64,000 nucleotides of DNA, from contig NC_088321.1 of NCBI RefSeq assembly GCF_910592395.1, forward strand, positions 8,120,001-8,184,000. Direction: 5' to 3'. This DNA comes from Lineus longissimus. Lineage: Eukaryota; Nemertea; Pilidiophora; Heteronemertea; Lineidae. Shown here one piece after another: positions 3,545-42,764 of this stretch. Position 1 is the first letter of the stretch. Each line of letters begins with the position of its first letter. The notes under the pieces were generated by a model. The model made no database searches and was not told where the DNA came from. It saw nothing but the letters and a program-made list of their open reading frames with translations. The translations under genes and the position numbers were made by a program.

Positions 3545-3629
3545 AATTCACTGTTATTATTATTGCAAAGAGACTCTGCTAATTTGTTGGCAGCTACTCT
3601 GTCTTGGTTTTTCTTATTTCTGTTAACAG

Positions 3630-5954
3630 CTAGGTGATACCGTGCCTTGTGTGACGGCGTACATCAGCTACAACCCCTTGACGTGGTTTGCCGTTTTCCT
3701 TCCACAAATTGTGCCAAAATAAAGCCCTTTGTTTACTCTCATTTAATTCCTCACTCCACCCAGCTCTACCCGGAGGTCTCCCTTGTACTCGTTCACTTTC
3801 AGGAATAGTTTCATTACTAGCACACATACAAGCTGTTATTATATCGTCATGAAATTCTTCTATTTGTTCACCATGAGTTGTACAAAAATAATCATTACAA
3901 ATTATGGCACCCATCGGTACATCGATATGATTTAATTTCTCGCTAAGATTCTGCTCATAATTCAATATGTTATGGTTCAGCTTTGCTCCATGCCAAGGTT
4001 TTCTTGGCCTCATCCTCATGTCTCAACTCATCATGAGCAGATCTCGCATTAACTTCTAAACCCATATGAAGACTGGAATGATCCGATGTATTATCTCCCT
4101 CGTTGAGAACATTGTAATTTACAATCTTGTTAAAAACACCTTCTGATACGTTAAAATGATCCAGTAGGGTACGTTCACCATTTATTTTACTTTCAAAGGT
4201 AAAATCAACATTACGTGTATTATGCGTGAGACCACAAATAAGGTTTTCCCGTTCAACGAAATCCAGCAGTGCTCTGGTGTGTTCCGACTGAAGCCTACTG
4301 AAGTCGGTATTCAGGTCTCCCCCTATTATAACCTCTCCATTGTTAGTAGCAAGAATGGCAGAAACTTCGTGTGACACTCTATTAAATTCTAATACATTTT
4401 CCCTCTTACCAGAATCGGTTGGCATATAAACATTGACCAGCAGTAAACCGTCTTTAATAGACTCGCTTTTTATATTAACAGCACACACTCGTTTTGAGTC
4501 ATGCTGCACTGGAGTTATACTCGCTTCGCTGCTTGCATTCCAAGCTATTGCAACGCCACCATACGGTCTACCAATTAACAATGACTCACCCTCCATGCCA
4601 GATGCACCATGGATATTAACATTGTTCCCAATGCCCCCCCTTAATTTGAGGAGTTGCTCATGAAAAAGCCACTGTTCCTGTAACAGGAGAAAGTCAGTGT
4701 TCACCAGGAGATCCTTCATGTACTGCTTTCTAGCGGGCCCATGGCCATTACTGTTAAATGTACACTCATGGTCAAAAGTAAATGGACACTAGTTTTTCTT
4801 GAATTTCTCAAAACCTAGGCTAAGCAGAAACATTCACCTAACACCGTTTGTAGCAAATGATCTTGGCTATTGAATGATGCTAAAATTTTAAAAATCTGTT
4901 TAGTTTTGCCTTTGATAGGAGAAATTTGGTAAATGTCTCTTTTTCACTACTTCTTAATTAGCAGGAATTCACCAATAAAAATTACATCCTCATGTTCGAC
5001 TCATGAAGGCCTTTCATAATATATCCAGTTTTTGAAATAATTCAAACTAGAAATGTGGTTTTTGGCCACTTTTACGGTAATGATTTTTACCCCACTGGAG
5101 ACACCTTTGACATAGTCCCATTAAACCATTGTCAACTCCAAATGAAGTGAAGTGGTTGTGAATGAATGCCAATTGTCTTGTATTGTGATCTGTCTGTTTC
5201 ACAATGACTAGGCACAGGCCCAACGATTATGGTCAGGTCTATTACCAATTGCGTTACATGGTTGTCATTTTAGTTAACTGGTCAGATTACTAATATGGGA
5301 ATCCCAACACAATTATTCAAGTGACATGAAGTGGCCTAGATGTTGATTCAAATTTAAAATGAACACAAAAAGGTAAATGACCACAAGTCACTTCTTAAAA
5401 GCATTCAAATTGATCAACAACCCACCACAATAATAATTGAATAGGCCTGTCAATATTCAAATTTAGATAATAATGTCCACCTTTTGTAAAAGGTCTGTTG
5501 ACCACCCTGCCATGAAAAACACAATGCCCACTCATTCACTCAAAAGGTCTGTTCAATAGAAAAGAATGGACCATGTCGTAGATGTGTCAAGCATGATCCA
5601 AATCATTACCGTAAAAGTGGCCAAAAACCACATTTCTAGTTTGAATTATTTCAAAAACTGGATATATTATGAAAGGCCTTCATGAGTCGAACATGAGGAT
5701 GTAATTTTTATTGGTGAATTCCTGCTAATAAAGAAGTAGTGAAAAAGAGACATTTACCAAATTTCTCCTATCAAAGGCAAAACTAAACAGATTTTTAAAA
5801 TTTTAGCATTATTCAATAGCCAAGATCATTTGCTACAATCGGTGTTAGGTGAATGTTTCTGCTTAGCCTAGTTTTTGAGAAATTCAAGAAAAACTGGTGT
5901 CCATTTACTTTTGACCATGAGTGTACATAGTCGCAACACATTCATTGTAGTCAT
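3630..5954 (-). pseudogene. LINE apurinic-like endonuclease and linker, interrupted by a MITE
   Basis: This is the N-terminal endonuclease domain of the same minus-strand LINE. The block at 4719-3970 has FLLLQEQWL, a metal-binding-type start, then IIGGDLNTDF and the C-terminal SDHSSLH, the classic exonuclease-endonuclease-phosphatase landmarks. A second frame at 4019-3630 is the linker to the RT. The first part of the domain is separated from the rest by the foldback element at 4763-5923. Across that insertion the reading frame rejoins at TA, and a TFNSNGHG segment precedes the block, with candidate ATG codons at 5954 and 5945. The frameshift near 4000 makes the copy inactive. The upstream 5' region of the LINE may run to the LTR-element insertion point at 6186. 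Confidence 0.8.
4763..5923. mobile_element. Tc1/mariner-type foldback MITE (TA target) inside LINE endonuclease
   Basis: A 1,161-bp non-autonomous element with very long inverted arms: about 4763-5086 pairs with about 5601-5923, roughly 320 bp with few mismatches. The outer ends read CACTCATGGTCAAAAGTAAA and its reverse complement, flanked by TA on both sides (4761-4762 and 5924-5925). TA target duplication and a GTCAAAAGT-containing terminus are typical of Tc1/mariner derivatives. The centre (5087-5600) has no ORF. It splits the endonuclease of the minus-strand LINE, so it is younger than that LINE. Confidence 0.85.
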
Positions 5955-6182: not shown

Positions 6183-6186
6183 ATTG
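6183..6186. repeat. Target-site duplication ATTG, left copy
   Basis: ATTG lies immediately before the left LTR and recurs at 22564-22567 immediately after the right LTR. A 4-bp duplication fits Ty3/Gypsy integration. The fifth base differs (T before the left copy, T after the right), so the length is four. Confidence 0.85.
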
Positions 6187-6861
6187 TGTTCCCAGCGTCC
6201 CTGAGGTTAACGAACATCCCTCAAGAGACCTGGTGCCGTAGACCGATGCTGAACTTGCAGACATACTAACTTAGCAGAGAATGAACTCGGAAGGCAGGAG
6301 TAATCATATAATAGTTTATTTGTACTTACTTGATATAGGAGTTTCTGATCTAGCTAGACACTATTGGATGCAAGCTGGGCCGCCCAAGAGAGGTAAGAGA
6401 GAGAGAGAGCCGGCGTGCCCAGTACTTAAATACCCAGATGCCAAGTCACGAGCTCAGAGTCCAGGATTACGGAAGACGAATACTAATTAAAGGAGCAACC
6501 CGGTCCAGGATACGAGGCCGTCCAGAGAGAGACCTAACAATGTCAAGTGCCTCCCCCTGGTAGCTGAAGACCATTGGGAAGCTATGATTGGACGCCTCGT
6601 ACCAGGTGACTATGATCGGAACGTTAACTGTGCCAAGATCACCGGCCATCCCTTTAAGGACTTACTGCTGTCACCGCAATCCTCCGACTTGGAACCGCGT
6701 GACTCGAACCCCTGGACTCACTGCTTATATTGTATAATAATATTAATCAAGGCTAAGAACAATGACGAATAGCTTGATAAGGCACGTTCGGTATACTTCA
6801 AACGAATTCAGTTAACCCTATGAACACCGTGAAGCCTACCTTTTAAGGGCTTCACGGTACA
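6187..6861 (-). repeat. 3' LTR (675 bp)
   Basis: Read on the minus strand it begins TGTACCGTG and ends GGGAACA, giving canonical TG...CA ends. It matches 21889-22563 at a fixed offset of 15,702 with no difference that I could find. Its first bases form a perfect hairpin, ACCGTGAAGCC with GGCTTCACGGT (6828-6860). A TATAAG box lies at about 6730-6724 and an AATAAA polyadenylation signal at 6320-6315 on the minus strand. Short ORFs inside it are present in both LTRs and have no motif. Confidence 0.95.
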
Positions 6862-6863
6862 TG

Positions 6864-6870
6864 CCCCCCT
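6864..6870 (-). promoter_or_regulatory. Polypurine tract for plus-strand priming
   Basis: On the minus strand the sequence AGGGGGG followed by CA lies directly upstream of the 3' LTR start TGTACC. Position and composition match a retroelement polypurine tract. Confidence 0.8.
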
Positions 6871-8943
6871 CGAAAAAGACCAGTCTGTCCCCAGACTGAG
6901 AAAGTTTTGCCCGATAATGAAAATATTGTAAGTGGCAGATCGCCAGTGACCCCAATGACAAACGGTGTTACAGTGTGACCCGTAGTAAATAAAAAGAGAT
7001 AAGGTACATTGATAATCAGTTGTGATAAAAACCCGAACGACCTTCCAACGCCGCTCACGCCTCGCCATGTTCTTTCTCCATTTTTACCCAGCAATTATAT
7101 ATGGTAAGTACAATTTTCTGATTCTCTATGTACTGCATCCTTGTTAAAATTAATCACTTATACCGAAAATGTTGCGTTCACCCCTGATAAATTCATAATA
7201 TATATACATGTAAGTGACAACTCACGAGAAAGGAAACAAACAAATCTCGGCTCACATTCGGCCTGTGCAAGACACTGAAACGTCGAAAAAAAAATTATTG
7301 GTTGAACTCAATGTTACTTGCCGTACCCAGGCCTATCACTTTCAGGTAACCGTCCTTCAACCCGGCATTATTATTAAAATATGCTTATCATTTCTATCCT
7401 TTTCACCGTAATGAAGCGGACCCTTAACACATGACAGCGTAACCTCACCAACACTGGGTAAAGTAACCCAAAGTACTCAATCAACTGGAGTTTGACAAGA
7501 AAAACTACCAAAAAACCAAAAAAAACTAATAAATATTGTGCTACTATTCCGTAATTCTTTTTACCCCAAATCTAACCCGAATCAGGTCCATTACCCTAGA
7601 CAAACCGGTCTATGAAAAATATAAAACGCCGTAAATATTCTTCGGTTTGCCCATTGTATGGAATATCCAGGACCATGACTCAGCTGTGTCATAACTAAGC
7701 CAGTGCAATCACGCAATCTGCACTAATGGTCCGGTTACTTCTTGCCTGAAACCTACTCCGTTCCCTTGAACGAGAGTAAAAATATCCTCTAGAGTCTGCC
7801 TTCTAGAACTTTGCTTTCATATCTCCTAGAGGATATCGCTACAAGAGCGCGTAGCCCATGCTATGAACACTCTTAAAGACAAACCACTGATTTTACAACT
7901 ATATATTAAAAAAAACAAACTCCGATGAGGCCCCGAATCAGGTGTTAAGGACGAAACAGACACAATTCTTGCCTTGGCTATCCCCATGAATAGCCAAGAA
8001 ACCAGTGCGTAGATATCAGGAAACGGTCAGGTGGAACAACCGCCCGACCTCCTCCTGTAGGGTCCAGCATACATTCCCTAGCTGGTTTCTTCCTCTACAC
8101 CCAAAAAAACTATCCTGCTAATAGGTACTCGCTTGACCCCAATGGCCACAACAATCCAATTAAATAAAAGTAATGGTGACACAATGATTCACCAGCCTGT
8201 GCTGAAAGCAAGGATGCACCCTGAGTAGCGACATATGAAAAAACATTATCAACGACCAAGGCCTATAAAAGATATTAGTTGTCTTTGCTTCAACCATTAG
8301 GAGGCAACGTAAGCGACAATCAATAATAAACGATAATGCCGTGCCTCCACGCAAATTAACAACAAACCACTACATTGACTACCTAATCAACACGAGACAT
8401 GCAATTGCCCCGAACATCCCTACGCCCCTTGGCTTGCAAAATAAACCACAGGTAAATCTGCCCCGAGAGTTGTTACCATAAAGATTTGAATACGATATAT
8501 CAATGCATATAGCATATACTAAAGATAACTTCAAACTTAATGCATAGCCTACAAGTATCAAGGCTCCGAGTTAATCTGACCTAGAAGGCACAAATTTAGT
8601 GAACCTTACGCAAGATGTCTTTATATGTCCCTATATGGTTATCAGTATGACACAATAGTGTGTTATATTTACAAATTCGATTAAACTAGCAAACCACCAA
8701 ACATATAGTACTATCAAAAGTCATAAGTTACTCTCGAAAGATATCTTTCATTCAAAAAAAATATTTATCAACACGGTCACCGTCATCAGTGTCTTGTAAT
8801 GCACAAACAAAACAAAAACCTCCGGCATGCTTAATCCGCGACAATCTATGCTGAAAAAACCCAAAACAATTATAATTACCTTCAGTTTCATTAAGATCTA
8901 ACTACTATACACCTTACAGGGATCAGAAACCATAATTTTGCAT

Positions 8944-9035
8944 GCACCCTCCGCAAGTCGGAAAAGGATGACTTTGGTCCAAACAAAATAATCTGAGTTG
9001 CATCCTCCGCAAGTCGGAAAAGATGACTTTGGTCC
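8944..9035. repeat. Duplicated 36-bp motif in retroelement 3' region
   Basis: Two near-identical copies, 8944-8980 and 9000-9035, share the core CCTCCGCAAGTCGG followed by GATGACTTTGGTCC. They are separated by 19 bases and differ by one indel and one substitution. It could be a repeated protein- or RNA-binding site; this is inference. Confidence 0.8.
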
Positions 9036-9198
9036 TGACAATCATTTGCTTCCATCACAGGAAATATAAATGTTTATATAATCAAAGTACAGTGTCTATT
9101 TCTGAAGAATGTTCGGTAATCCAAACCCACCGTAGTCGTCATATTCCGTTTGACAATCCGCACGTACCCGTATGACGATGCATTCGTAACAGACAAGA

Positions 9199-9243
9199 GC
9201 TTTCCAACGTAGAGTATAACCGCTTCCCAACGTAGTGTATAAG
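9199..9243. repeat. Tandem 22-bp repeat with TATA-like core
   Basis: Two adjacent copies of a unit containing TTCCAACGTAG followed by GTATAA lie at 9199-9220 and 9222-9243, just upstream of a plus-strand mini-ORF at 9288. The GTATAAG of the second copy could serve as a TATA element for antisense transcription. That role is inferred from position only. Confidence 0.6.
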
Positions 9244-9287
9244 ACTTATAACGAGTAATTCGTTGCAGCAGCGACTGAATGTTGAAG

Positions 9288-9398
9288 ATGGATCCTCCTC
9301 GCCGTGACCAAGATGAACCCTGGATATTGGACGCTCCCCGCTTTCAGATTCGGAAGGAGCATTTGATTGAGAAAAAGACGAAAAGGACCGACCGGTGA
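9288..9398 (+). CDS. Possible antisense mini-ORF or first exon inside retroelement
   Basis: A 36-codon plus-strand ORF starts at ATG 9288, about 45 bases after a GTATAAG motif. The product begins MDPPRRDQDEPWILDAP and is charged. The stop TGA at 9396-9398 is embedded in CCGGTGAGCC, a good splice donor, so transcription could continue as a first exon instead of stopping. No acceptor was identified with certainty. This may be chance; it is listed because promoter-like repeat, ATG and donor line up in the same direction. Confidence 0.25.
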   Translation: MDPPRRDQDEPWILDAPRFQIRKEHLIEKKTKRTDR

Positions 9399-10001
9399 GC
9401 CAGGAATGACCAAGTAAGAGAAACGGTGCCGTGGTGTCCGAAAATATTTACTTTAAAACGGGTTGAAATTTTGGTTACATTTTTGGTGTAGGTTTGACAG
9501 CAAAAAAAAGTTAGAAAATTGTTATTTTTAAAACGAAGATGACGCCCAGCCCGTGAACACCCTTGTTTACCACTGTTACCATTATTACGATATTTCCCAA
9601 AAACAATTACGACGCGGCGAACCCGCTTGCTATGTTAATCCAGACCAAAATAACTATCACCCTTCCATCTCACCACGTAGCCATCACACAGTGATGATAA
9701 TATAACAGGCTTTGGTTCCTCAGCGACCAAATGACCAGCCGTCGCTAGTCACCAGGAGCTGTTCCCCATATTTGCCTTTAAAATTTGATACGCTGGTCAA
9801 TGCATAACTGTGGCCTCATTTTGCTTTGGACCGAGGCTGAAGCTTTCACTCAGGAAAAACAGTCCAGCTGTTTCCCAATCTTATGCTTCGCCACTTGTCC
9901 TTATTTACCGCTCGATGCCCAGTATGTATAATATATATATGATATATGGTGTGACGCTAAACGTATCCTAGGAATGTGGAGAATGGACAGAGCGTACTGC
10001 T

Positions 10002-11084
10002 CTAAAAGTCGACATCATCGATGTCGACCAGAGGAGGCATTTCCTCCTCCTCTGTGGGAGTAAAGTGATCTAGCAAGCTGGCAAGCCACGTGTATGGTCG
10101 AAAATTTAAATGTTTGATAAATGCCCTAGGTGGGGCGGGACAATTTTTTTTAATTTCCTCGCGCTTTGCAAGGACCTGGGGGTCCGACCTCCCCGCTATC
10201 ACAGCGAGAGGACCATGCCTTCTATAACCGAAATGGGTACCACAGGCCGGACACAATAGCTTTGTGACAGTGTTAAACATGTGCCAAACTAATACGATCA
10301 CGCATCTGACATGCATTACGTGATGGCAACATGGCATAAAATATACCGAGGGCTGAGGATGGTAAAACGACTCCAACTCCGTATACGATTTGTCGCACCG
10401 TGCGCAGGTCTTTCCATATAAAAATTTTTGAAATAGATGAGCTCGGTGTCTAGTACGCCGGCGAAGCTCTTTGTTTAGAGAAGTTGCCACGAAAGGGCCT
10501 TTACCCACTCTCGAACGATCTACTAACCCAAAAATATGAGAGCGAGACATCCCCCCTTTTTCTGAAATGTATTTTACAATAGCTGGTGTAAACGAGTTGT
10601 GAACCCCGAACAAATTTAGTAGACGGGTCAAAATGGACGCCGCCGTTTGTAAGGTCAGATGCTGCTGCACGGCTTGCCGAATCATGTCAAAATGTTGACA
10701 TTGGAGTTGGGTGTACGGCCACTCCGAAACCCTACGGTAACAAACGTTGATGCTACCCTCTATATATTGCCGGAAGACAGTCTGCTGTAATGAGGGGCTG
10801 TCTAATATGAACGCCGCCTCAAAATAGTCATATAGAGGATAGCGGCCAGAGTCTGTGGGAAGATGTAGCAAATACTTCAACAGTTGTATAAAAACGACAC
10901 CGGACACCACCGCCGGCCAATCGTGATGGGTTAGGTCCCCCACGGACTGGCCCTGCAAACCCCTAAAACGATAGACCGCGCTTACATAGCCGGAAGCGCG
11001 GCAAAGAGTTTCTTGCTGCTTTTTCGTTAGCTCGGGTAGGCTCACCCGTGGTCCTCTTGCCGTCGTGGAGCCATTAGTCGCCAT
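10002..11084 (-). CDS. RING-H2 zinc-finger accessory protein of the retroelement
   Basis: A 360-residue protein encoded after env. Residues 227-281 carry a RING-H2 pattern: C227-x2-C230, then C252/C253, H254/H255, H258, C261, and C278-x2-C281. The spacing fits C3H2C3 RING fingers, which in many proteins recruit an E2 enzyme for ubiquitin transfer. The first 220 residues are helical-looking and unlike anything I recognise; the last 20 are strongly acidic. The ATG at 11084 directly abuts a strong splice acceptor (pyrimidine-rich CTTTCTTTTCTTCCTCAG), so it is probably translated from its own spliced mRNA. RING genes are not a standard part of Gypsy elements. Whether it counters host restriction, acts on Env or Gag, or was captured from a host is unknown. 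Confidence 0.8.
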   Translation of the reverse strand: MATNGSTTARGPRVSLPELTKKQQETLCRASGYVSAVYRFRGLQGQSVGDLTHHDWPAVVSGVVFIQLLKYLLHLPTDSGRYPLYDYFEAAFILDSPSLQQTVFRQYIEGSINVCYRRVSEWPYTQLQCQHFDMIRQAVQQHLTLQTAASILTRLLNLFGVHNSFTPAIVKYISEKGGMSRSHIFGLVDRSRVGKGPFVATSLNKELRRRTRHRAHLFQKFLYGKTCARCDKSYTELESFYHPQPSVYFMPCCHHVMHVRCVIVLVWHMFNTVTKLLCPACGTHFGYRRHGPLAVIAGRSDPQVLAKREEIKKNCPAPPRAFIKHLNFRPYTWLASLLDHFTPTEEEEMPPLVDIDDVDF

Positions 11085-11106
11085 CTGAGGAAGAAAAGAA
11101 AGCTGT
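11085..11106 (-). promoter_or_regulatory. Strong splice acceptor at the RING gene start
   Basis: On the minus strand a long pyrimidine run followed by CAG ends exactly one base before the ATG of the RING ORF. This makes the ORF the first codon block of a subgenomic exon. Acceptor quality is judged by eye from polypyrimidine length and the CAG. Confidence 0.7.
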
Positions 11107-11182
11107 TATACACTTGGTCTTATTTAACGATAAACGAAGCCCCCTGACGAAATGAAGCTTGTCGGCACCCATATTTGTTTTA

Positions 11183-13831
11183 TCAGTCAGCGAGAGGAAG
11201 AGATGGGTACAACGGAGCCGTGGGGCCGACCCCTCTGTCATGTATTTTTGGTTCAGGTTGCCTAAGATTGGACATGCTGGTTGCCCTATCCACTAAGATG
11301 GCATTTACAAAACTGGTTGGACCCAAGAGGTCATTTTTCTCGCAGAACATAACTAGGAATTTGGAGTTAACGCGGTAGTACAAACGGACTTGACACGTGC
11401 TCCGTATTATGTGTCGTATTTTCCACTGGAAAACGCCAAGCTCCATTTCGGTGGGCAACCTACATTGACTAGAACATTCCCAGTCCAACGCTAGTTTCAA
11501 AGAGAGGCACGTTGGATGCACGGTAATCCCAACATCTTTAATTGAAGAAATTGTCTTATTTGTCAACCGGGAAGTCTGAGGCACTTCTAGGAACTTTGAC
11601 ATGTGACCGGAACTAAATTCGATCACCAAACAGTTTGGACTTATGCCCAACAAATAAGAGATAAGCACTTCTGCATATTTAAGAAAAAGGATTAGTAAGA
11701 TTACACCTGTTATCGCCACGAGAGACGACAAAAGTTTTATCTCAATGTTTACTGCCCCAATGGCCTGTTCAACCTGTTGAGTAAAATTTCCTATATTTTC
11801 AGAATCGAGGTGAAATTGGTTAAGAGCTTGAACTTGGGTTTCTTCAGACCCCGCTTGTAAACTCCAGAAAGTAGCATTTATTGGACCTGCATCAGCCGTC
11901 GGTACCTGGGCAAAGGTAGCAACCGTGAAAATAGCTGGCGCCCGCACACCACACGTTTTACACAGAAGGTAGGTAGCCACTACGGCGGCATATACCGCTA
12001 AAACCGAGTTAACTACCTGAAACGAGATACCAAACCCTGGTATCACACTACCCCCGCCTACCGTTGCATGAGACTGAGTGGCCAGAAAATCTGCCTTAGT
12101 AGCAAATGTGCTGGCCCGTTCGGTACCACTGTCCAGGGTGGCTTTTAAAGAAGCCTGAAACTGTTGATCTTTGGCGGCAATATTTGTCCAATTCATCTCG
12201 TTCAGGTTAATGGGCGGTATCTCGATGGAAGGTGGAGTTTTCAAGGGCACCGAGTTTACGGCATATTTCATAACATCCTCAAGTGGATATGCATGATAAA
12301 GCAAGGGCAAATTTATGGGATGTTCATAAACCATCTTACCCTGGCTGGCTGCATCACACGTAGAAACCTGTGCGGGTATATGAAACTTTTTGGACGACAA
12401 TCCGCATGCACAACCAAGGGTCACGATCGCAAACTTGCTCGCTGGCACTGGAACGGTTGGTTTGCCCGCACAATTTTTCTGCCAAACGGGTTCGTCTCCC
12501 GAGGCCAAGTATTTTCCAGGGGCTAATTGTATGGCGCCATTTAAAAGACCACCTTCCTTTTGGTACCGGATATCACAAAACTTAATGGTGTCCGGGACAT
12601 TTGAAAAATAAATTGCCGACACACAAGAAGGTAGTGTCTTGCTTCGCAGTGCTACCGCCATATTACATCGAGTTTGATCGCCATCCTGCTCACAGGACGC
12701 CGTATATTCGTCATACCATTCATTAACAAATTCACCATCCAGAGTTACCCCAAAATACCTGGGTAAATTCATCACCTTCGATGTTGCGGTGGAAGAATGA
12801 TTAAGAGGAACCGGTAACGAGATTACCGAATACAGTTGCACCAATGATTCAGATGACGCTAGCGGCACCTTTACCGAAACAAATATGTTGTTATCATCCC
12901 TGCTAAAAAGGATATTTTTGATATCATAATAATACAAAGGATCAGGGTGAACCACATGAAACCGAGGGTATTGCGCGGCTAATCCCTGACTTATGGTCGT
13001 CAAAACGGTCTGTAAACTGTCTCTGGGGACAAAAGCTAATGGTAAATAACCTTGGACCAAGGTCCTTACCGCTAACACCCAGTTATATAATTCGGATTCC
13101 ACATCGGCTAGATAACCCAGAGTGACCACCGATTCTGTTATCAAGGCGCCTAAGGCCGAAATTGCTGCCTCAACATCTCTAAGTTTAATTGCCATGGTGT
13201 TTAACTGCATATTTAATATTTTAATTTGGTTATGATTATCCAATACACCGTCCATAGCATTTGTCAATCTTGCTGAAACCACTTTCATTACGGAATGCAT
13301 TTCCTTTTCAAAAGATTTTATCTCATTTGTATTTAGATCAACTTGCTGTGTTACGAGTGCCACATGGTTTTTGAATTTATTGAAATCTGCTTCCGTTACT
13401 AGGCCGAAAATGGAAGATGCTACTTGACCTAAACCGCCAAGAATAGCCCTTTTCGATCGCGGTTGCGGTTTACCCCATTTGACGGGCATGAGCTCCTGGG
13501 CTTCATTCACCCACTTTTGTACCCGTTGTACCATTTCCGTACGCCTTGTTCTCAAATTTTGGGCTGCTTCCCGAATTCGCTTGCACATTAAACCGGACGT
13601 AGTAGCGTCCGTGACACAATCATAAAATTTAATCTCCGAAACCAGGTTAGATAGGTTTGGGATAGGAATTTGAAAAGTCTGAAACCATGTGGACTCGGCC
13701 ACGTTGATCATAGATTTCTTTTTGAACACCACCCCAAAGGAAGCGCGAAGGACGACATCGTCCTCCAGAACTACCAGTGGTGGCAGCCCTAGTACTAGGC
13801 CCAAAAATAAAAGAAAACACCGAGCCTTCAT
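11183..13831 (-). CDS. env: Envelope glycoprotein, F-like, of the retroelement
   Basis: The frame is open from 13915; the first ATG is at 13831, giving 882 residues. It begins with a hydrophobic signal peptide (about residues 3-21 from that ATG). A furin-type site RSKR (residues 125-128 from the ATG) is followed by a hydrophobic, glycine-rich fusion-peptide-like stretch and then a long heptad-like region. The small N-terminal and large C-terminal fragments match the layout of class I F-type envelope proteins seen in baculoviruses and insect errantiviruses. Two hydrophobic segments follow, at about residues 603-624 and 698-729, and a long tail of about 150 residues, which is unusual. There is one possible internal break at neither end; the frame is intact. 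Fusogenic function is inferred. Confidence 0.85.
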   Translation of the reverse strand: MKARCFLLFLGLVLGLPPLVVLEDDVVLRASFGVVFKKKSMINVAESTWFQTFQIPIPNLSNLVSEIKFYDCVTDATTSGLMCKRIREAAQNLRTRRTEMVQRVQKWVNEAQELMPVKWGKPQPRSKRAILGGLGQVASSIFGLVTEADFNKFKNHVALVTQQVDLNTNEIKSFEKEMHSVMKVVSARLTNAMDGVLDNHNQIKILNMQLNTMAIKLRDVEAAISALGALITESVVTLGYLADVESELYNWVLAVRTLVQGYLPLAFVPRDSLQTVLTTISQGLAAQYPRFHVVHPDPLYYYDIKNILFSRDDNNIFVSVKVPLASSESLVQLYSVISLPVPLNHSSTATSKVMNLPRYFGVTLDGEFVNEWYDEYTASCEQDGDQTRCNMAVALRSKTLPSCVSAIYFSNVPDTIKFCDIRYQKEGGLLNGAIQLAPGKYLASGDEPVWQKNCAGKPTVPVPASKFAIVTLGCACGLSSKKFHIPAQVSTCDAASQGKMVYEHPINLPLLYHAYPLEDVMKYAVNSVPLKTPPSIEIPPINLNEMNWTNIAAKDQQFQASLKATLDSGTERASTFATKADFLATQSHATVGGGSVIPGFGISFQVVNSVLAVYAAVVATYLLCKTCGVRAPAIFTVATFAQVPTADAGPINATFWSLQAGSEETQVQALNQFHLDSENIGNFTQQVEQAIGAVNIEIKLLSSLVAITGVILLILFLKYAEVLISYLLGISPNCLVIEFSSGHMSKFLEVPQTSRLTNKTISSIKDVGITVHPTCLSLKLALDWECSSQCRLPTEMELGVFQWKIRHIIRSTCQVRLYYRVNSKFLVMFCEKNDLLGPTSFVNAILVDRATSMSNLRQPEPKIHDRGVGPTAPLYPSLPLAD

Positions 13832-13895
13832 ACCTTTAAGAAACTGGTCAGGCGTGCGTTTAAGAATTGACTTCAGCAAAACCGACAAATGGTAA

Positions 13896-13938
13896 TCTGA
13901 AACGATAAGGAAGAGTTAAAGTTTCTGAAAGGAAAACA
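13896..13938 (-). promoter_or_regulatory. Paired splice acceptors upstream of env
   Basis: On the minus strand, between the pol stop and the env ATG, there are two good acceptors: TGTTTTCCTTTCAG (exon starts 13924) and CTTCCTTATCGTTTCAG (exon starts 13896). Env mRNA in related elements and in retroviruses is spliced, so these are the probable sites. Which is used cannot be told from sequence. Confidence 0.65.
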
Positions 13939-13958
13939 GCGTGCCGCGTTTGGAAACT

Positions 13959-16900
13959 CTACCAGTTCCTCTTTTTCCCCTTTTTAATCTTCCTAGGTTG
14001 ATCTAGGAACGATTGAACCAAACCTGGGGTAACAACGGCCGATTGGTCTACCCAAGAGTTATGTTTGGGCCCATAATCTTTCCATTTCACCAGGAACTGT
14101 AATTTCCCCTTTCGTTCTCTCTTTTTGACGATTCCATCAATTTCATATATGTCATCAGTTTCAGACTCACTACTCGCAGCCTTGCTGCCAGCTTCCCCTT
14201 GTACGGAAGAAGAAGCCTGCTTACCCACCTCGTCTGCCTGGAGTTCAGTTTGGTGACCCCCGTCCGTCTCTGCATGAAGAGGCGCAGGTTCCCGATGGTT
14301 GAAAGGAATGTCTTCCTCAGCAAGAGGTTCACCCTCACAGGGAATGTCAGAAGGTTCAAAGGTACGCATATCATCCCAGAAATAACGCTTCATCCTATCC
14401 GGATGCATAAGATTTTTCAGGGTTGTATTTTGCATAGTTTTTAAACGAAAGGCCTTCGGGCGCACCTCTTCCATAACATAATATGGACCCACCCACTTTG
14501 AAGAAAGACATTTCGAGAGCCCTTTTGACGCCTTCTGACGAGGGGTCAGCAGTAAACACAAATCGCCCGGTTTCCAACCCGGTTCAACAGCCTTCTGATC
14601 GAAGCGCTGTTTCATGTATTTACGTGACTGCTGTAGCCTCAACCGTGCCTCCTCTTGTGCAACTTCCAAACCTTTCAGGAGGGTTTTGATATAACTGTCA
14701 ACGCTTTTTACCGCCGAGAGCTCAGGAGATAAGGCTATATCTAGGGGAGTTACTGGCATCCGTCCAAACATTAAGAAATAGGGGATCTGATTCGTGGCGT
14801 TGGTTATACTCGTATTGTATGCGAATGCAAGTGGAGCTAGGAAAAGAGGCCAGTCACGTTGGTCAGGGGAAACATATTTGGCTAACGCCGCAGCAATCCA
14901 TTTGTTGGAAACCTCAGCTAACCCTTGCACCTGGGGCATGTAACTGCATCCTACTGATTTAACAATGTTGCACAATTGACAAAACTGAGTCATATTCTTA
15001 CCAGTGAAATAGGCAGCGCCATCAGTGAGTATTTTCTTGGGTGGAAAAAACTTACAGACAATTTCATTAAACAATATATCTACAATTTCCTCCGATTGAA
15101 CTGACTTCAAGGGGAAAAGCCAACAGTATTTTGAAAAATGATCCATGATAACCAGACAGTGAAGGTATCCTTGGGATGATTTCGTGAGAGGTCCTTTTAC
15201 ATCAATCACTAAAACCTCCCCTAATTGCGATGTTTGCATGGGAAGCAATGGGGCCTTAGGATGTTTAATCGGAAAGGACCGAGCTTGACACGGGAGGCAA
15301 GTTTTACACCATTCTTGTATAGTTTCTTTCATATTTTTCCAGAAATACTTGTACCGAATGCGGTCATACGTTTTTGCTGCCCCCATGTGCGCCGCCATCG
15401 GCTGATCATGAGAAAACTCAAGAATCTGCGGAACCAGTTTCGAAGGGACAACCGTAAGATGCAAGATTTTCGGACCGTGTTTAGTGGGAAGCTGTACAAT
15501 TCGTTTTAATACCTGCTCCACTAGGGCATATTTATCAGCTTCTTTCTCTACCCTTGATGCAATGGACCTATCTTGAGGCAACGTGCCGTGTTCCAAATAC
15601 TGGATTATGTGTCTCAATTCAGGATCTTCGTGTTGTGCCGCCTGTAACGAATCTAAGGAAACTGGATATTTACTGCTGTCAGGAGTTTCCAAACTATTTA
15701 CCCCCGGCTCATTTGGCCTGGACAACAGGTCGGCCAAAGGGATGGTAGTGCCTTCTGCATGGAGTATATCAAATGAATATTGCTGTATGGCTAGACTCAT
15801 TCGCATTAATTTTGGTGAGTCTGTTCTTTTTTGTAGCAGATAGGTAAGAGCTTTGTGATCCGTTTTTACTAAAAAATGAGTTCCTGCTAGGAACATTTTG
15901 AAATGGCGAAGTCCCTGTACCAACGCAAACATTTCCTTTTCTGTAATACACCAATGTGACTGAGTTTTAGTAAGAGTTTGACTATAATAGCCCAACGGGT
16001 GTCGTTTGTTTTCTTTGACCTGATAGAGAACGGCCCCAATGGCAAAATCACTGCTGTCGGAGATAAGCAGGAAAGGCAACGACTCGTCCGGGTGATTCAA
16101 TAGAATAGGCTCAGTGGTTAAAGCTGTTTTCAACGTCTCGAAGGCCCGCTCACAGCGCTCATCCCAAACAAACTCCACATCCTTACGCAATAGTGCCGTC
16201 ATAGGGTATGCAATTTTAGAAAAGTCTTTAATGTATGACCTATAGAACGACGCAGCTCCCAGGAAGCGTTTGATATCTTTTACCGTTTTAGGCTTTGCAA
16301 AGTTGAGAATTTTCTCTACGTTTTGCGGATTTGGTTTTGTGCCCTCGGCAGATAGTATCTTACCTAGGAATTTAACTGACCCCTTGGCGAATACGCACTT
16401 AACTGGGTGCATCTTGAGATTAGCCTCACGAAACCTTTGAAAGACACGGTCCAAATGAGCCATATGCTCGTCAAACGTCGCAGAGTGAATTAAAATGTCA
16501 TCCAGATAAGCATTTGCAAAACTGGAAAGACCTGATAAGACTAAGGACATTACTTTCTGAAATTGGTGAGGAGCTGATTTGATGCCAAAAGGCAACCTAC
16601 TATACGAAAATTGACCAAACGGACAAATTGCCGTCGCAACGTCTGAACTTCTGGGCGTAAGCCCGAGTTGATGGTAGCCCGCTTTCAAATCTAGCGTTGT
16701 GAAGTACTTGGGATTTCCCGCATTCCCTAACTGCGTTAAATGCGAGGCGATGGGGAGGGGGAATCGTAGGAAGGGTAATTTTTTGTTTAACTCTCTAAAA
16801 TCACATACGACCCTATAAGTCCCATCGGGTTTGGCTACCAGGATCATAGGCGAACCAAATTCTGAGTTAGTTGGATGGAGGAGGCCTGCTTTTACAAGTT

Positions 16901-19900
16901 TGCCGACTTCTTGTTCTAAAATCTGACGACGTTTCGGTGATAACTGATAAGGCTTGGAAATAACTGGTTCCGTTCCCTTAAATCCCAAGTCTACTAACCC
17001 TTTTGTGCAGAGGCCTAAGTCCGACAAGTCCACGGCAAATAAATCTTGATTAGCGGTTAGGAATTCATGTAATTGTTTCTTTTGGTCTTCCGTCACCTCA
17101 GATTTTGATAAGTCAATTAGATCAATCGCTTTAGGCTTTTGAGTCGGTGCTTCTGGTCGTTGAAAAGGATGAAAAGAATCAGTCGCATTTAACAAGTCGT
17201 CTTCCTCCATTATTAAATCCACTGAAGCTACGGCCGGCAATGGCGACAAAATGGCCACCTCAGTGCCTGCCCGCAAATGTATTGGTTGCGATAGGACATT
17301 GATAAGTTTTAACGGCACGCGGTCATCAGTGACCTTTACTACGCTGTTTGGTATATAGATGTGAGAACTGCTAAATAAGTTTGGTTTTTCCTGCAATACA
17401 CCTTCATAGCCCTCTGGCTTATCGTGACTAAGTGGAACAAAGATTACCGTATCTGACCTCGGAGATAGAGTATATGACTGATCTAACAAGATAGTTGTGG
17501 AATTATCCAAAGATATACTGCCTATGAATGGAACAGCTGGTTCGTTTGGCATTCTTAAGGTGGCATTTCCAAAATCTAAAGTAACCTGGAACCCATTTAG
17601 AAAATTTCGGCCTAAGATAATCTGTTGCGTAGCTAACTGGCTTGGCAAAATGTAAAAAGGTACCTCGATGCGGGTTCGGCCTACTAACAGCGGAATTTTA
17701 ATCAACCCTTTTAGTTTTAGGGAAGTACCATTTACTGCCGCTGCTTGGGAGAACAGCCCTTTAGTCACTGGTAACCGTTGTAAGATTGGATCAGATTGTA
17801 TAACAGTTTCACTAATTATGCTGATGGCAGCGCCACTGTCAACCAATGCTAAATGAGATTTTGATCCAACCTGGGCTTGAATCAATGAGGTTACCGAAGC
17901 CAAAACAGGAGGGTTGCCACTAGCAAGATCCCAATCACATTCCGGTGCAGTTGGAAGTACTTGGAAATCTTCCTCAGACAGAGCATTACCCCCCGAGTCA
18001 AGTGCATTTTTCACCACCCGCGCTTTTATTTCCGATGAACTAGTACTAGAAACAGTTTGAGACTTTTCCTCTTCTAACGTCACGGCTTTCTGTAACTCGT
18101 CCTTTTGAGTTGGCATTTTTAGTTCCACCAAACCATTATCCCCTGTAATCGAACCATTGAGAACAGCGTCATCTTTTACTGTTGAACTTAACTTCAGTGT
18201 ACTAGAGTCTGACATTCCCCCTATTGCAACCGTTTCTTCAAGCTGATCTGTTTGCGAACCCTCTTTTGAAACCCTACTATACTGCGCTTTGACCCCAGGA
18301 CCGTCCTTCGGAGGGTCCTTAATCTCTTGGATGTTGGGTTCGTCGGGTAGGTCGTTGTTTGCACCCACAGTGATCAGTTTAGTTTTACTCCCAAGTACCT
18401 GCGATAAACCAACTGATTGTGTACTCAGATTTGGCAAGTGCCCCAGTTCCGCAGTGTCTGTAATATTACTTAATGGGGACTCGACCGCGTCCCGGTGTTT
18501 ATAAACTGAGTTGTTATCACTTTGACCTAGGCCTACCGTTTGCGAGGAACTCTGAGATAACTGTCCACTTAAAGGGAGGACGCCCGAAGTATCCATAATG
18601 TCCGATCTGGTTGGCCCCACGAATCCACCTTCCTTAGAAGGAGAGGATTTAGACCTGACTACTGAAATGTCCCCTTTTACATACTCATCACGGTCGCCGG
18701 GACCTGAGGGCTGTTGACCGATACTATCCCTAGGTTCGGCCTGAAGTACAGTAGACCTATGCCCAGCATTTTCATCCGATGGTTTGCTAACCCTACCAGT
18801 AGGCCTACGCAACGGTATACGCAGGGTTGGACCCAAAACTAAGCTTAACTGAGAATAGTCAATTCTAGCATCCGCATATTCTAAAAAATCTGCTCCTAGG
18901 ACCATGTCCACCTTAATACGATCACAAACATAAAACGAGAAACAAATTGAAAAACCCTTGAACCTAAGTCTAATTGAAACCGTGCCTAATAAAGGGATGT
19001 CGTGATTACTTGCTGACGATATGCTCTTGACCTTGCCCTCCGCTATATCTTTGAGGTCAAAACTGGAATCCCATTTCTGTAGTAAAGACGGGGTGACTAA
19101 CGACAAACTGCCCCCGGTATCAACTAAGGCCTCGAATCGCACACCCTGCATCTCTAGGTGTATCATATTTGCTTCTGAAAAATCTTCTACCGTACCTACT
19201 TGGTTCTCTGTCGACTTCTCCGACTGTTTGCATGCATGTACATCGACCGATTCTTGAAAACTATAAACTTCTGGTTGAACAAGACCTACTTCGGTTCGCA
19301 AATCCTGGGGTGAACACCTTTCCCCCTTGGTTTCATACCGCACTTCCTGTTCTTTCACTATTGCCTCCAAATACGCCTGGAGATTACCCCCATCAGCATC
19401 TAGGCCTGTTTCATCTTTATCTAAGGAACTGTTGCCTAGACCTTCTTCTAAGCTACGGGTAGTATCCTGACTACTCGGTCCTAGTGTATCTCTAACATAC
19501 TGCTGGAATGCCCGTTCTTCATCATAGGGCACCGTGTCGAAACTATTAACATCTCTACTGAATGTACTCGAGTCACTCGTTTCCCAATTGTGACCCGTAT
19601 TGCCACCATATAATTCACCTATGTTATCAGGATACCATTCCTGACTCTCTGTGCTCATATAAGCCTCGGATTCACACCCCTCATATCGAGACCTGATTTC
19701 AGTTTCCTCAGCATAACTATCATATCCCCTAAAATCTCCAAAATCGCCGTCATCATATGGATACCCATCTAGATCGGTATCAAAAATACAGTCAACCTCC
19801 GCATATTCCTCATCTCGGTAGTCTTCCCTAACATTTGATCTACCGCTAGGCCTATATCGATCACTATCCTGCCAGTCCAAAGTACAAAACTCGTCACTAT

Positions 19901-20053
19901 CAAGATTGCCAAAAGTATAATCTAAATCACTAAAAGCACTATCATAGGCATAAACGTTACTATTATCCTGCCCCTGACGTCGTATACGACTACTCTGTAA
20001 ATACCCGGGTCCATGAAATTTTAAGTTACCGTGATCATGGGCCCTACCAACTA
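13959..20053 (-). CDS. pol: Pol polyprotein: two proteases, RT, RNase H, integrase, chromodomain
   Basis: This frame is reached by -1 frameshift from gag and has about 2,030 codons; the upstream frame stays open to 20087 and has no suitable ATG. Numbering from codon 19880: retropepsin 1 at 238-350 (DTGG at 254-257, GADFL near 329), a 300-residue serine/threonine-rich linker, retropepsin 2 at 660-780 (DSGA at 681-684, LGRNFL), RT at about 975-1160 (YLDD 1125-1128), RNase H at about 1245-1365 (D1275, D1341), integrase with a H/C zinc site (H1491, H1498, C1528, C1531) and D1560, D1620, E1656 with the usual 35-residue gap, a GPY/F module near 1797, and a chromodomain at about 1909-1960. All catalytic residues I looked for are present. 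Two proteases and a chromodomain beside env are unusual. Confidence 0.93.
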
Positions 20054-20060
20054 GTTTAAA
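20007..20060 (-). promoter_or_regulatory. -1 ribosomal frameshift signal between gag and pol
   Basis: On the minus strand the heptamer T TTA AAC (20060-20054) sits in the gag frame directly before the gag stop TAG. After a 9-nt spacer, GGGCCCATG (20044-20036) can pair with CATGGACCC (20015-20007), eight of nine bases, around a 20-nt loop. TTTAAAC is a classic -1 slippery site, and shifting here enters the open pol frame, which overlaps gag from 20087. Slippery site, spacing and stem all agree. Confidence 0.9.
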
Positions 20061-21658
20061 CGCTGAGAGTATGAGGGACCCTGCCGGCTAGGCGGCTGAC
20101 TGCTTTTTGGACGGAATGGCGTAATATTATCGTGGGGACCCGACCTGTCCTGAAAGTTAGGCCTGTCCCTAGGTGGCCCATTATACCTAGCACTTGGCCT
20201 CGACATAGGCCGATACACCTGGGGAGTATAAGCATTAGTCTGAGACTCGGATCTATTCCTAGGACAATTTCTTGCGATATGATCTAAGGAATTACAGGTC
20301 CAACATGACCTAGGGACCTGTTGTTGCCGGGTGGTACCTGAACAGACCGAATAATGATGCGATCCTCCACATTTCTGACAAACCACATCACCCCTCTGGT
20401 CCCTAGCTGCCCTAAAGTTAGGATTACGGCCCACCTGCATACTCAATGTCTGCAACTGCTGCCGCACCTCGCGTAATTCCCTTCGAACACTTGACTCATC
20501 CCGGCCCTCGTTATCTGACAAGGGCTGTGTCTGACTTTGGCCCTGCCCCATGGTCTTGAATGACTCAAGCTTGTCTAGCACCGCTATGATGCCGGCATTG
20601 GTGGAAGCATTGGCGTCAAGGCTCTGCGTGTCCTCAAATAATTTCGCTGCCACCAAGGCCTCATCAAAGCTAAGTGGTGCAGCTCTTAAAACATGGGCTC
20701 GAATTGGTGGCCTAAGGCCACGGATAAAATAGCTTAATTTTTCAGGAGCTGATACATTCAAGGCCATGGAGGCTTGGACCACCTCCTGTGCATACTGATC
20801 AACCGAATCTGAGGGCCCCATCTGCTTGGACATGAGAGCATTAAGTTTAACAAACCTAAACTTTTCATTTTCGAAATGACTGAGGAAAGCCTCGGCCAGT
20901 GAATCCCATTCTGCGCGGATTTCTGGGCGTAAGTTTAAGAACCACAACCAAGCGCCTGAGCGCATATTTAACCCAAAGACAGCCACGCGCTGTTCTCGGC
21001 TTAAACCTTTCGTTTGCGCGTATAGCGAAAAACGGGTGAGCCAATCTCGGGCCCCAACGCTGTCCTTCATGCCTAACCAGGGTTCAAGTTTAAGCTCAGA
21101 AAGTTTTACGCTACTGCCAGTAAATTCGCGGAATGACTCTCTAATATCCTCCCACATTGAGCGGGAGCTTGGTACCTTCCCCCCATTGCCGTTTGAACTT
21201 TCCGTAAAGGAGTTAGAGGCCATTTTGTCGATGCTTTGATTGACTTTAGGAGTGGACGTTACGAAATCAACGTCAGTTTGAGTTTGGAAATTTTTTGATG
21301 GGATTTTTAAATCCGTTTGAGTGTGAACTGGTACTTTTTGGATTGGACTGTCCGGAAACGTTAAGTGTAAATGCTCATTAATATTGGAACCCGCCCAACC
21401 GTCGTCAAAATACTCGTCTGCTTCCTCAAATTTTACGTGCTTAGTTTGTGTGCCTTCTTCAGGCTGAGAGTCTTCTAGAATGGAACCAAAAGATGGAAAC
21501 TTTTCGTCGTCGATACCGCTTTCCGTTCTAAAATGCTTAAATATGCGATCAAGCTGACGGGACGTTGCTTGTGGGGTCCAACGTTGTTGGCCTAAAGGTT
21601 CTGGATTGTCTGGCTCGTATACGATGCGGTTTCTCAAATTATGACGTATCTGCGGCAT
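20051..21658 (-). CDS. gag: Gag polyprotein with capsid domain and two zinc knuckles
   Basis: 535 residues from a true ATG at 21658. Residues about 195-345 look like a Ty3/Gypsy capsid (retrotransposon gag) region with GMKDSVGARDWL and a YFIRGLRPPIR segment. A coiled stretch lies at about 385-410. Two zinc knuckles follow: C427-x2-C430 with H434/H435 and C439 (slightly irregular), and CWTCNSLDHIARNC at 452-465, a canonical CCHC. The arginine-rich tail probably binds RNA. The last sense codons overlap the frameshift heptamer, so the ratio of Gag to Gag-Pol is set there. Gag forms the particle core; this role is family knowledge. Confidence 0.93.
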   Translation of the reverse strand: MPQIRHNLRNRIVYEPDNPEPLGQQRWTPQATSRQLDRIFKHFRTESGIDDEKFPSFGSILEDSQPEEGTQTKHVKFEEADEYFDDGWAGSNINEHLHLTFPDSPIQKVPVHTQTDLKIPSKNFQTQTDVDFVTSTPKVNQSIDKMASNSFTESSNGNGGKVPSSRSMWEDIRESFREFTGSSVKLSELKLEPWLGMKDSVGARDWLTRFSLYAQTKGLSREQRVAVFGLNMRSGAWLWFLNLRPEIRAEWDSLAEAFLSHFENEKFRFVKLNALMSKQMGPSDSVDQYAQEVVQASMALNVSAPEKLSYFIRGLRPPIRAHVLRAAPLSFDEALVAAKLFEDTQSLDANASTNAGIIAVLDKLESFKTMGQGQSQTQPLSDNEGRDESSVRRELREVRQQLQTLSMQVGRNPNFRAARDQRGDVVCQKCGGSHHYSVCSGTTRQQQVPRSCWTCNSLDHIARNCPRNRSESQTNAYTPQVYRPMSRPSARYNGPPRDRPNFQDRSGPHDNITPFRPKSSQPPSRQGPSYSQRLN

Positions 21659-21870
21659 ACTAATGCTTGCACATATTAGATTATCTTATTACAACTTAAT
21701 AGCCCTATTGCTGATTGCCGACATAAATTTGTATCGGTTAATCGTGATAAAAGGCTCCCGTAAATGAATTGAAACTTAAAACGCTAGGCTCTGTAATGCA
21801 CCCCTGAATCATTCGGGCAAGGTAGACTTCATCCGCTACTTTATGAAAGTCTGTCCACAAGGTTCAGCAG

Positions 21871-21888
21871 AACAAGCTCTGACTACCA
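21871..21888 (-). promoter_or_regulatory. Candidate primer-binding site
   Basis: Directly after the 5' LTR the minus strand reads TGGTAGTCAGAGCTTGTT. It starts with TGG, as expected for pairing to a tRNA CCA end. It resembles an initiator-methionine site (TGGTAGCAGAG or TGGTATCAGAGC) but with one extra base, so I do not assign the tRNA firmly. Confidence 0.65.
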
Positions 21889-22563
21889 TGTTCCCAGCGT
21901 CCCTGAGGTTAACGAACATCCCTCAAGAGACCTGGTGCCGTAGACCGATGCTGAACTTGCAGACATACTAACTTAGCAGAGAATGAACTCGGAAGGCAGG
22001 AGTAATCATATAATAGTTTATTTGTACTTACTTGATATAGGAGTTTCTGATCTAGCTAGACACTATTGGATGCAAGCTGGGCCGCCCAAGAGAGGTAAGA
22101 GAGAGAGAGAGCCGGCGTGCCCAGTACTTAAATACCCAGATGCCAAGTCACGAGCTCAGAGTCCAGGATTACGGAAGACGAATACTAATTAAAGGAGCAA
22201 CCCGGTCCAGGATACGAGGCCGTCCAGAGAGAGACCTAACAATGTCAAGTGCCTCCCCCTGGTAGCTGAAGACCATTGGGAAGCTATGATTGGACGCCTC
22301 GTACCAGGTGACTATGATCGGAACGTTAACTGTGCCAAGATCACCGGCCATCCCTTTAAGGACTTACTGCTGTCACCGCAATCCTCCGACTTGGAACCGC
22401 GTGACTCGAACCCCTGGACTCACTGCTTATATTGTATAATAATATTAATCAAGGCTAAGAACAATGACGAATAGCTTGATAAGGCACGTTCGGTATACTT
22501 CAAACGAATTCAGTTAACCCTATGAACACCGTGAAGCCTACCTTTTAAGGGCTTCACGGTACA
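21889..22563 (-). repeat. 5' LTR (675 bp)
   Basis: Same sequence as 6187-6861. On the minus strand it has a TATAAG box at about 22432-22426, then a GTAAGT splice donor at 22031-22026, three bases, and an AATAAA signal at 22022-22017. The hairpin at the U3 end lies at about 22530-22562. The donor and poly(A) signal nearly touching is notable; see findings. Confidence 0.95.
22026..22031 (-). promoter_or_regulatory. Candidate major splice donor in the 5' LTR
   Basis: The minus strand reads ATCAAGTAAGTACAAATAAAC. GTAAGT is a near-consensus donor upstream of gag and could supply the leader for env and RING mRNAs. An equivalent copy exists in the 3' LTR (6324-6329). Use as donor is inferred. Confidence 0.5.
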
Positions 22564-22567
22564 ATTG
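22564..22567. repeat. Target-site duplication ATTG, right copy
   Basis: Matches 6183-6186 and bounds the large LTR element on its transcriptional 5' side. Confidence 0.85.
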
Positions 22568-29819: not shown

Positions 29820-29828
29820 CACATTAAA

Positions 29829-40730: not shown

Positions 40731-40739
40731 GTGACGTGA

Positions 40740-42760: not shown

Positions 42761-42764
42761 CTAA

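What the first reader, a model, noticed from the sequence alone, without database searches (positions are those of the whole stretch)
6187..22563. Large env-bearing, chromodomain-containing Gypsy element with four genes
Gag, Pol, Env and a RING protein are all open in one 16.4-kb element with intact LTRs and TSD. Established knowledge: env-bearing metazoan Gypsy elements (errantivirus-like) normally lack a chromodomain, while chromoviruses normally lack env. Here both features occur together. That combination, plus size and an extra gene, suggests a distinct lineage of endogenous retrovirus-like elements.
Basis: partly seen in the sequence, partly recalled or inferred. Interest (0 to 1): 0.95.

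Follow-up and report, generated by a model that had tools for sequence, protein, structure and literature searches.

The report
Chromodomain retrotransposon with envelope and RING
A recently inserted 16-kilobase retrovirus-like element in an unidentified genome joins two parts usually reported from separate families, a chromatin-reading integrase tail and a viral-type envelope gene, and adds a RING-finger-like gene; related elements in the same genome share the first two parts and some also have a RING-like gene.

Summary
The element is real: window 6187-22563, minus strand, two identical 675-bp LTRs, 4-bp TSD, four open genes. The Pol chromodomain passes Pfam, as in 7 of 7 sister integrase ORFs tested. 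Env itself has no significant Pfam hit, but a 42%-identical sister and three others pass Baculo_F, so it is read as F-type. In the same 391-Mb genome 18 of 24 integrase loci whose match reaches the chromodomain have an env just downstream, against 5 of 52 that stop short; 6 of 24 have none in the capped list. ORF4 fails Pfam's RING cut-offs but has the RING-H2 ligand pattern, a likely 3' splice site at its ATG and dN/dS 0.26; RING-pattern ORFs follow env in two other families. Four of four gag-pol junctions held have TTTAAAC. The RT tree puts six own elements and one metagenomic Pol together (99/96), apart from other groups, but the AU test does not reject union with one chromodomain group. 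Best reading: an env-bearing chromodomain lineage with a spliced RING-like accessory gene. Host unidentified; the key survey paper was not held, so novelty is provisional.

The parts
21889..22563 (-). 5' LTR, 675 bp, TATAA at LTR position 133, AATAAA at 542
6187..6861 (-). 3' LTR, identical to the 5' LTR
6183..6186 (.). target-site duplication ATTG, left copy
22564..22567 (.). target-site duplication ATTG, right copy
21871..21888 (-). putative primer binding site, begins TGGTAG directly after the 5' LTR; sister C19 begins the same way; tRNA not identified
20051..21685 (-). gag, Ty3-type capsid (PF19259, PF03732 above cut-off), CCHC knuckle just under cut-off
20054..20060 (-). -1 frameshift heptamer TTTAAAC, in phase with the gag codons (TTA AAC), followed by the gag stop
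   Evidence: heptamer also in C19, C12, C6:13.9M
20007..20044 (-). hairpin nine bases downstream of the heptamer; same position in C19 with compensatory change
13959..20087 (-). pol, 2042 aa open frame
18885..19157 (-). first retropepsin domain PR1 (DTG), residues 311-401
17577..17885 (-). second retropepsin domain PR2 (DSG), residues 735-837
16359..16835 (-). reverse transcriptase, residues 1085-1243
15777..16166 (-). Gypsy-type RNase H, residues 1308-1437
14934..15449 (-). integrase zinc binding and core, residues 1547-1718
14001..14147 (-). chromodomain at the C-terminus of Pol, residues 1981-2029; Y, W, Y at the columns of the HP1 aromatic cage (cage positions recalled)
13897..13925 (-). 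two candidate 3' splice sites (AG ending at 13925 and 13897) after pyrimidine tracts, upstream of the first Env ATG at 13831
   Evidence: read by eye
11183..13915 (-). env, first Met at residue 29; read as F-type fusion glycoprotein through sisters
13448..13459 (-). furin-type site RSKR followed by a hydrophobic fusion-peptide-like stretch
11085..11110 (-). likely 3' splice site CTTTCTTTTCTTCCTCAG directly before the ORF4 ATG
   Evidence: read by eye
10002..11105 (-). ORF4, 360 aa from the ATG at 11084
10233..10406 (-). RING-H2-like ligand pattern in ORF4, residues 234-291
   Evidence: same sequence in the C6 copy scanned
6862..6871 (-). polypurine tract GAGGGGGGCA next to the 3' LTR
6872..10001 (-). 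3.1-kb stretch without an ORF over 102 aa between ORF4 and the 3' LTR

Best explanation
A recently inserted member of a Ty3/Gypsy lineage that carries a chromodomain on integrase, an F-type envelope and a RING-like accessory gene. Inferred cycle: full-length RNA gives Gag, and Gag-Pol by -1 frameshifting at UUUAAAC; spliced RNAs give Env, and ORF4 from a splice acceptor at its ATG. Env, cleaved at RSKR, would let particles pass between cells or individuals. The integrase chromodomain would tether integration to methyl-lysine chromatin. ORF4 would act as a RING E3 ubiquitin ligase, most likely against a host restriction or silencing factor. Shown: gene order, domains, recurrence in sisters, frameshift heptamer in sisters, recent insertion, constraint on ORF4 in one pair. 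Inferred: splicing, frameshifting itself, fusion, histone binding, ligase activity and target.
For: Identical LTRs and 4-bp TSD; second copy at C6 with identical LTRs and its own TSD CAAG. Chromo above cut-off here and in 7 of 7 sister integrase ORFs tested. Baculo_F: 5 of 8 env members match at E up to 1; of the 7 other than this Env, 4 pass the cut-off, one of them the 42%-identical sister at C19. Env within 3 kb 3' of 18 of 24 chromodomain-reaching integrase loci against 5 of 52 others. One RT clade 99/96. Strict RING-H2 pattern in 5 of 857 ORFs of the 20 stretches fetched, none in shuffles; three of the five lie 3' of env in two other families. ORF4 dN/dS 0.255, p 1.2e-9, against the C8 copy. 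TTTAAAC in 4 of 4 gag-pol junctions held.
Against: RING models stay below Pfam cut-offs; the C19 and C15 ORF4 relatives have T where the RING-H2 pattern has its first H and gave no strict hit; the N-terminal parts of the ORF4 group and the C6/C1 group show no detectable homology. This Env has no significant Pfam hit, and 3 of the 7 others, P0005, C12 and C1, have none at 0.01. 6 of 24 loci show no env. ORF4 constraint in a second pair is weak, 0.55, p 0.036. The window's junction fold is no more stable than shuffles. The C8 ORF4 copy stands without a gag, pol or env match in the DNA held. Both structure predictions failed, mean pLDDT 38.7 and 29.1. No transcript was looked at.
Confidence: 0.72

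Rival explanations
1. An ordinary chromovirus group that captured an F-type env, perhaps in this host's line only; the lineage is not separate and the combination is a recombination product.
For: AU test does not reject a clade with chromodomain group A, p 0.135. Six of 24 chromodomain-reaching loci lack a detected env, among them C10:6114175, 44% identical with an open frame of 1802 aa.
Against: Env pairs with chromodomain Pol in families whose env are 24-42% identical to this one, so the association is not recent; the free tree keeps the groups apart at 99/96; P0007 and P0005 are related Pol and Env in other data sets, though from different contigs.
Confidence: 0.2
2. An errantivirus-type element, env and Pol inherited together, that gained a chromodomain.
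For: Shared Baculo_F-type env with the group of P0102, whose predicted protein carries RT and PF12259.
Against: RT places P0102 and kin in another group (100/99); union marginally rejected, p 0.046. All 7 sister integrase ORFs tested have the chromodomain.
Confidence: 0.15
3. ORF4 is not a ligase but another zinc-binding protein, for example a nuclear export or RNA-binding factor; the pattern is only a cross-brace zinc fold.
For: Sub-threshold RING scores; T at one ligand position in the C19 and C15 relatives; no solved relative by sequence; the listing of PMC10309623 (title and start of abstract) describes an extra Cer1 protein needed for nuclear export of its RNA.
Against: The full RING-H2 spacing in three further ORFs of two element families at the same place.
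Confidence: 0.3

Closest known systems
Errantivirus and other env-carrying gypsy elements of metazoans
   Same: gag-pol-env order in a Ty3/Gypsy element; F-type (Baculo_F) env supported through sisters; recent insertions.
   Different: Chromodomain on integrase; RING-like gene; RT outside the group that holds P0102. The survey that covers metazoan elements (Chary and Hayashi 2025, eLife 108449) was not held; known only through passages and the reference lists of PMC13172572 and PMC12859917.
Chromoviruses (chromodomain Ty3/Gypsy)
   Same: Chromodomain C-terminal to integrase, HP1-like; PMC2774666 names chromoviruses by this feature (passages).
   Different: env and accessory gene present; RT not inside chromodomain group A in the free tree, though union is not rejected.
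Bdelloid rotifer Juno, Vesta and TelKA elements
   Same: LTR elements with extra ORFs beyond gag and pol (listing; passages of PMC5408684).
   Different: That paper reports no chromodomain in any of its lineages (passage).
Complex retroviruses (recalled)
   Same: Gag-Pol by frameshift, spliced env and spliced small accessory genes.
   Different: Here a Gypsy-type RNase H and no hit to a second, retroviral one; I recall no RING accessory protein from them, which was not searched for as such.

Membership tests
Ty3/Gypsy (Metaviridae) | LTRs, short TSD, PBS, PPT, and PR-RT-RNase H-IN order | tested here: met
   the tRNA of the PBS was not identified
Chromovirus | chromodomain at the integrase C-terminus | tested here: met
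   Chromo 41.1 bits, cut-off 25.1; HP1 alpha alignment
Chromovirus | RT groups with other chromodomain elements | tested here: inconclusive
   apart from group A in the best tree; joint clade not rejected, p 0.135; beside group B only at 83/62; no named chromovirus in the tree
Chromovirus | no env gene (usual, not strictly defining) | tested here: not met
   env here and at 18 of 24 chromodomain-reaching loci
Errantivirus | F-type (Baculo_F) envelope | tested here: met
   indirect only: own Env has no significant Pfam hit; its 42% identical sister passes the cut-off
Errantivirus | RT in the errantivirus clade | tested here: inconclusive
   separate in the best tree; union p 0.046; the group is marked only by P0102 with PF12259, no named errantivirus used
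Errantivirus | no chromodomain (usual) | tested here: not met
Retroviridae | second RNase H with tether domain | tested here: not met
   one Gypsy-type RNase H region found by Pfam
Troyka | 3-bp TSD and CG...CG termini (PMC12440569, part 1 of 5 of its text read) | tested here: not met
   4-bp TSD and TG...CA
RING E3 ligases | eight zinc ligands in RING-H2 spacing | tested here: met
   by pattern, (C6 copy of this ORF4)
RING E3 ligases | match to a curated RING model | tested here: not met
   best 15.1 bits against a cut-off of 27.9
RING E3 ligases | E2 binding and ubiquitin transfer | not testable with these tools
   none

The most novel reading that the evidence does not exclude
A deep clade of infectious Gypsy-type retroviruses that joined chromatin-reading integration with F-type envelope entry and kept spliced RING genes behind env as counter-defence tools: a gypsy-side counterpart of complex retroviruses.
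Probability: 0.4. Interest if true: 0.88.

Novelty: new variant of a known kind. Interest (0 to 1): 0.7.

Why it matters
Integration targeting by a chromodomain and spread by an envelope are mostly reported from different elements. A lineage with both would let one ask how an infectious element chooses integration sites. A RING gene carried behind env would be an accessory gene of a kind that I recall from large DNA viruses rather than from LTR elements, and would point to a host target to look for.

Tried and rejected
Structure of ORF4 alone and of Env with one homologue: useless models (mean pLDDT 38.7 and 29.1), so no fold search was run. ORF4 in the 5.8-billion-protein set: none of 2885 candidates scored. 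Four scans of viral contigs with Env, Pol, P0007 and P0005: no relative. Solved structures: one chance-level hit for Env, none for ORF4. Idea that the C8 ORF4 copy is a retrocopy of a spliced message: rejected, its homology includes the intron side of the splice acceptor. Idea that a Polinton carries ORF4: rejected, the C7 and C15 ORF4 lie beside matching env pieces of LTR elements. Common origin of the whole RING proteins: not shown (the RING part alone aligned at E 9.4e-5, probability 58.8%). Host identity: three tries for COX1 met a busy machine, so the host stays unknown and 'marine invertebrate' was not tested. RNA families in the window: none at gathering score. Passages of PMC9040795, PMC8556966, PMC12992720 and PMC8220671 held nothing on chromodomain and env together.
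Full report
The element. Window 6187-22563 holds a 16,377-bp LTR element on the minus strand. The LTRs are 675 bp, identical, with TGT...ACA ends, and a 4-bp TSD, ATTG. A second copy at C6:4592037-4605719 also has identical LTRs and its own TSD, CAAG, but lacks about 2.7 kb across the end of gag and the start of pol; the two elements' LTRs differ at two positions. Both insertions are therefore recent. The LTR search listed 64 matches, with 40 of 91 candidates scored; 14 cover the whole LTR at 96% or more, four of them those of these two copies. I did not test how many of the other ten are paired. Further copies of env and pol at C11:7.39M and C4:12.26M have stops inside.

Genes. Gag has a Ty3-type capsid; Pol has RT, RNase H, H2C2, integrase core, chromodomain and two RVP stretches, with whole-protein scores above Pfam cut-offs. 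The second retropepsin is the one shared with P0007 at 51% over 135 residues and with C19. A DTG/DSG scan shows one protease-like site in C19, C12 and C4; C6:13.9M has one besides three repeats of another kind. A frame at C6:8.57M matches the first retropepsin at 59% over 71 residues, cut by the end of the stretch held, and has the second too. The chromodomain segment matches an HP1 alpha chain at 9.2e-14, with Y, W and Y in the columns that I recall as the aromatic cage. Among the 7 sisters W is kept throughout, the first position is F or C in some and the third C or L in two.

Expression signals. Gag and Pol overlap at TTTAAAC, in phase for -1 slippage here. The heptamer is also at the gag-pol junctions of C19, C12 and C6:13.9M, the only other junctions held. 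A hairpin nine bases downstream is shared by the window and C19, with five changed columns, ten of ten pairs standard in C19 and nine of ten in the window; random substitution gave ten standard pairs in 0.15% of trials. Against this, the window's fold is not more stable than shuffles at either length tried (z 0.93 and -0.34), C19's is so only at 71 bases (z -2.2) and not at 91 (z -1.0), and C12's best fold does not show the hairpin (z -0.57); C6:13.9M has a 9-bp stem six bases downstream (z -4.4). In C12 the pol frame is broken behind the heptamer (read by eye). Pyrimidine-rich 3' splice sites precede Env, and one ends directly at the ORF4 ATG; they were read by eye, not scored. I found no splice donor in the leader by eye.

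Env. One relative with E up to 0.01 among 7999 scored candidates of 5.8 billion proteins, P0005, 27% over 64%. In the own genome 54 matches, 50 of 119 candidates scored; 16 loci other than the window and C6 copies have an open frame of 780 aa or more and no stop in the match, at 26-42% identity (my count). The 8 aligned members share cysteines and a fusion-peptide-like stretch. RxKR before that stretch is present in 5 of 9 env looked at (window, C19, C12, C19:9.4M, C4), not in P0005, C1, C6:8.57M and C6:13.9M. Baculo_F matched 5 of 8 members at E up to 1. Of the 7 other than this Env, C6:8.57M, C4, C6:13.9M and C19 pass the cut-off; C12, C1 and P0005 have no family at 0.01.

ORF4. No hit among 2885 candidates. 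In the own genome 21 matches, including open frames at 23-24% identity at C19, C7 and C15. The strict RING-H2 pattern was found in 5 of 857 ORFs of 60 aa or more in the 20 stretches, some of which overlap; the window itself was not in that scan. The five are the C6 copy of this ORF4, the C8 copy, a 75-aa frame at C19:9.4M and two ORFs at C6:8.57M; residue shuffles gave none. Apart from C8, these lie 3' of env. The C19:4.42M and C15 relatives of ORF4 and the families C12, C4, C6:13.9M and C1 gave no strict hit; behind env only about 2 and 1.5 kb were held for C4 and C6:13.9M. C12 is 99% identical to C19:9.4M on both sides of the stretch that holds the RING frame there and lacks that stretch of about 1 kb. 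Pfam RING scores stay under the cut-offs in all seven further proteins tested, and three of these, from C15, C1 and C19:9.4M (the latter a 170-aa frame in front of the RING frame), had no hit. Selection: window against C8 dN/dS 0.255, Fisher p 1.2e-9; C19 against C7 0.55, p 0.036. The N-terminal parts of the two RING groups do not match (hhalign probability 0.2%), the RING parts do at E 9.4e-5; common descent of the whole gene is not shown.

Association of chromodomain and env. The integrase-chromodomain search gave 81 matches, 80 of 1597 candidates scored. Merged to 76 loci, 24 reach the chromodomain; 18 of them have an env match within 3 kb downstream on the same strand, 6 do not, the closest of the six being C10:6114175 (44%, open frame 1802 aa). 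Of 52 loci that stop short, 5 have one. Odds ratio 28, p 2e-8. Both searches were capped and ranked by likeness to this element, so likeness itself inflates the contrast, and absence of env means absence from a capped list. I chose the cut at query position 505 and the 3-kb distance.

Phylogeny. The Pol search scored 8000 candidates and listed 120 of 284 hits. RT-RNase H tree of 59 rows (6 own, 52 chosen of the 120 listed, Ty3): the 6 own elements and P0007 form one side of a branch at 99/96; chromodomain group A is at 100/99; the P0102 group, marked by Baculo_F in P0102's predicted protein, at 100/99. A quick tree of 126 rows has the same 7-row set at SH-aLRT 94, not starred. AU tests: union with group A not rejected, 0.135; with the P0102 group 0.046; with group B already present at 83/62. 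The groups were named after the first tree was seen. No named chromovirus or errantivirus was in the set.

Literature. PMC2774666 (passages) names the chromodomain branch chromoviruses; PMC12440569 (part 1 of 5 and passages) does likewise and reports env gained independently, that of Errantivirus likely from baculovirus. PMC4724089 (passages) counts 'chromodomain and/or GPY/F' in HERVs; its table does not separate the two features, so it bears only weakly against calling the combination unusual. PMC13172572 and PMC12859917 (passages) report env-carrying gypsy elements widespread in metazoans. Ten searches of the held library listed no paper whose title or shown abstract start describes chromodomain and env together in an animal Gypsy element, or a RING gene in one; ten papers were opened, in parts or passages, and the most pertinent was not held, so this is no claim that it is unpublished.

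Noticed in passing
G000 C7:13075402-13129464 (L026-L029): An element of the C19 family is split between env and ORF4 by about 42 kb; the pieces of that insert that were read hold ORFs with a motif that I recall from Polinton-type DNA polymerases. Similar ORFs lie beside the C15 ORF4 remnants.
   Followed up: partly
G000 C8:9007533-9008720 and C8:8998062-8998979 (L032, L006): Two ORF4 copies, one open over 396 aa, with no gag, pol or env match of this family in the DNA held around them.
   Followed up: partly
G000, several places, e.g. C16:12708339, C20:12928816, C14:3179251: A related LTR form whose matches skip positions 200-377 of this LTR.
   Followed up: no
G000 C12:9841023-9844700 (L035): A 1226-aa open frame, running to the end of the stretch held, that joins gag-like and env-like parts; apparently an internally deleted element.
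   Followed up: no
G000 C19:4426811-4428684 (L024, L025): Two ORFs of 291 and 182 aa on the opposite strand in the long 3' region of the 21-kb sister element.
   Followed up: no
P0024: A Gypsy-type polyprotein filed under a bacterial MAG (Sedimenticola), probably a eukaryotic contig in the bin.
   Followed up: no
window 59269-60142: Tandem array of a 302-bp unit, about 2.9 copies.
   Followed up: no
window 1906-4788, 29040-30824, 38434-44521, 63097-63783: Pieces of reverse transcriptase and endonuclease ORFs, as of non-LTR retrotransposons, and a DDE transposase ORF around the element.
   Followed up: partly
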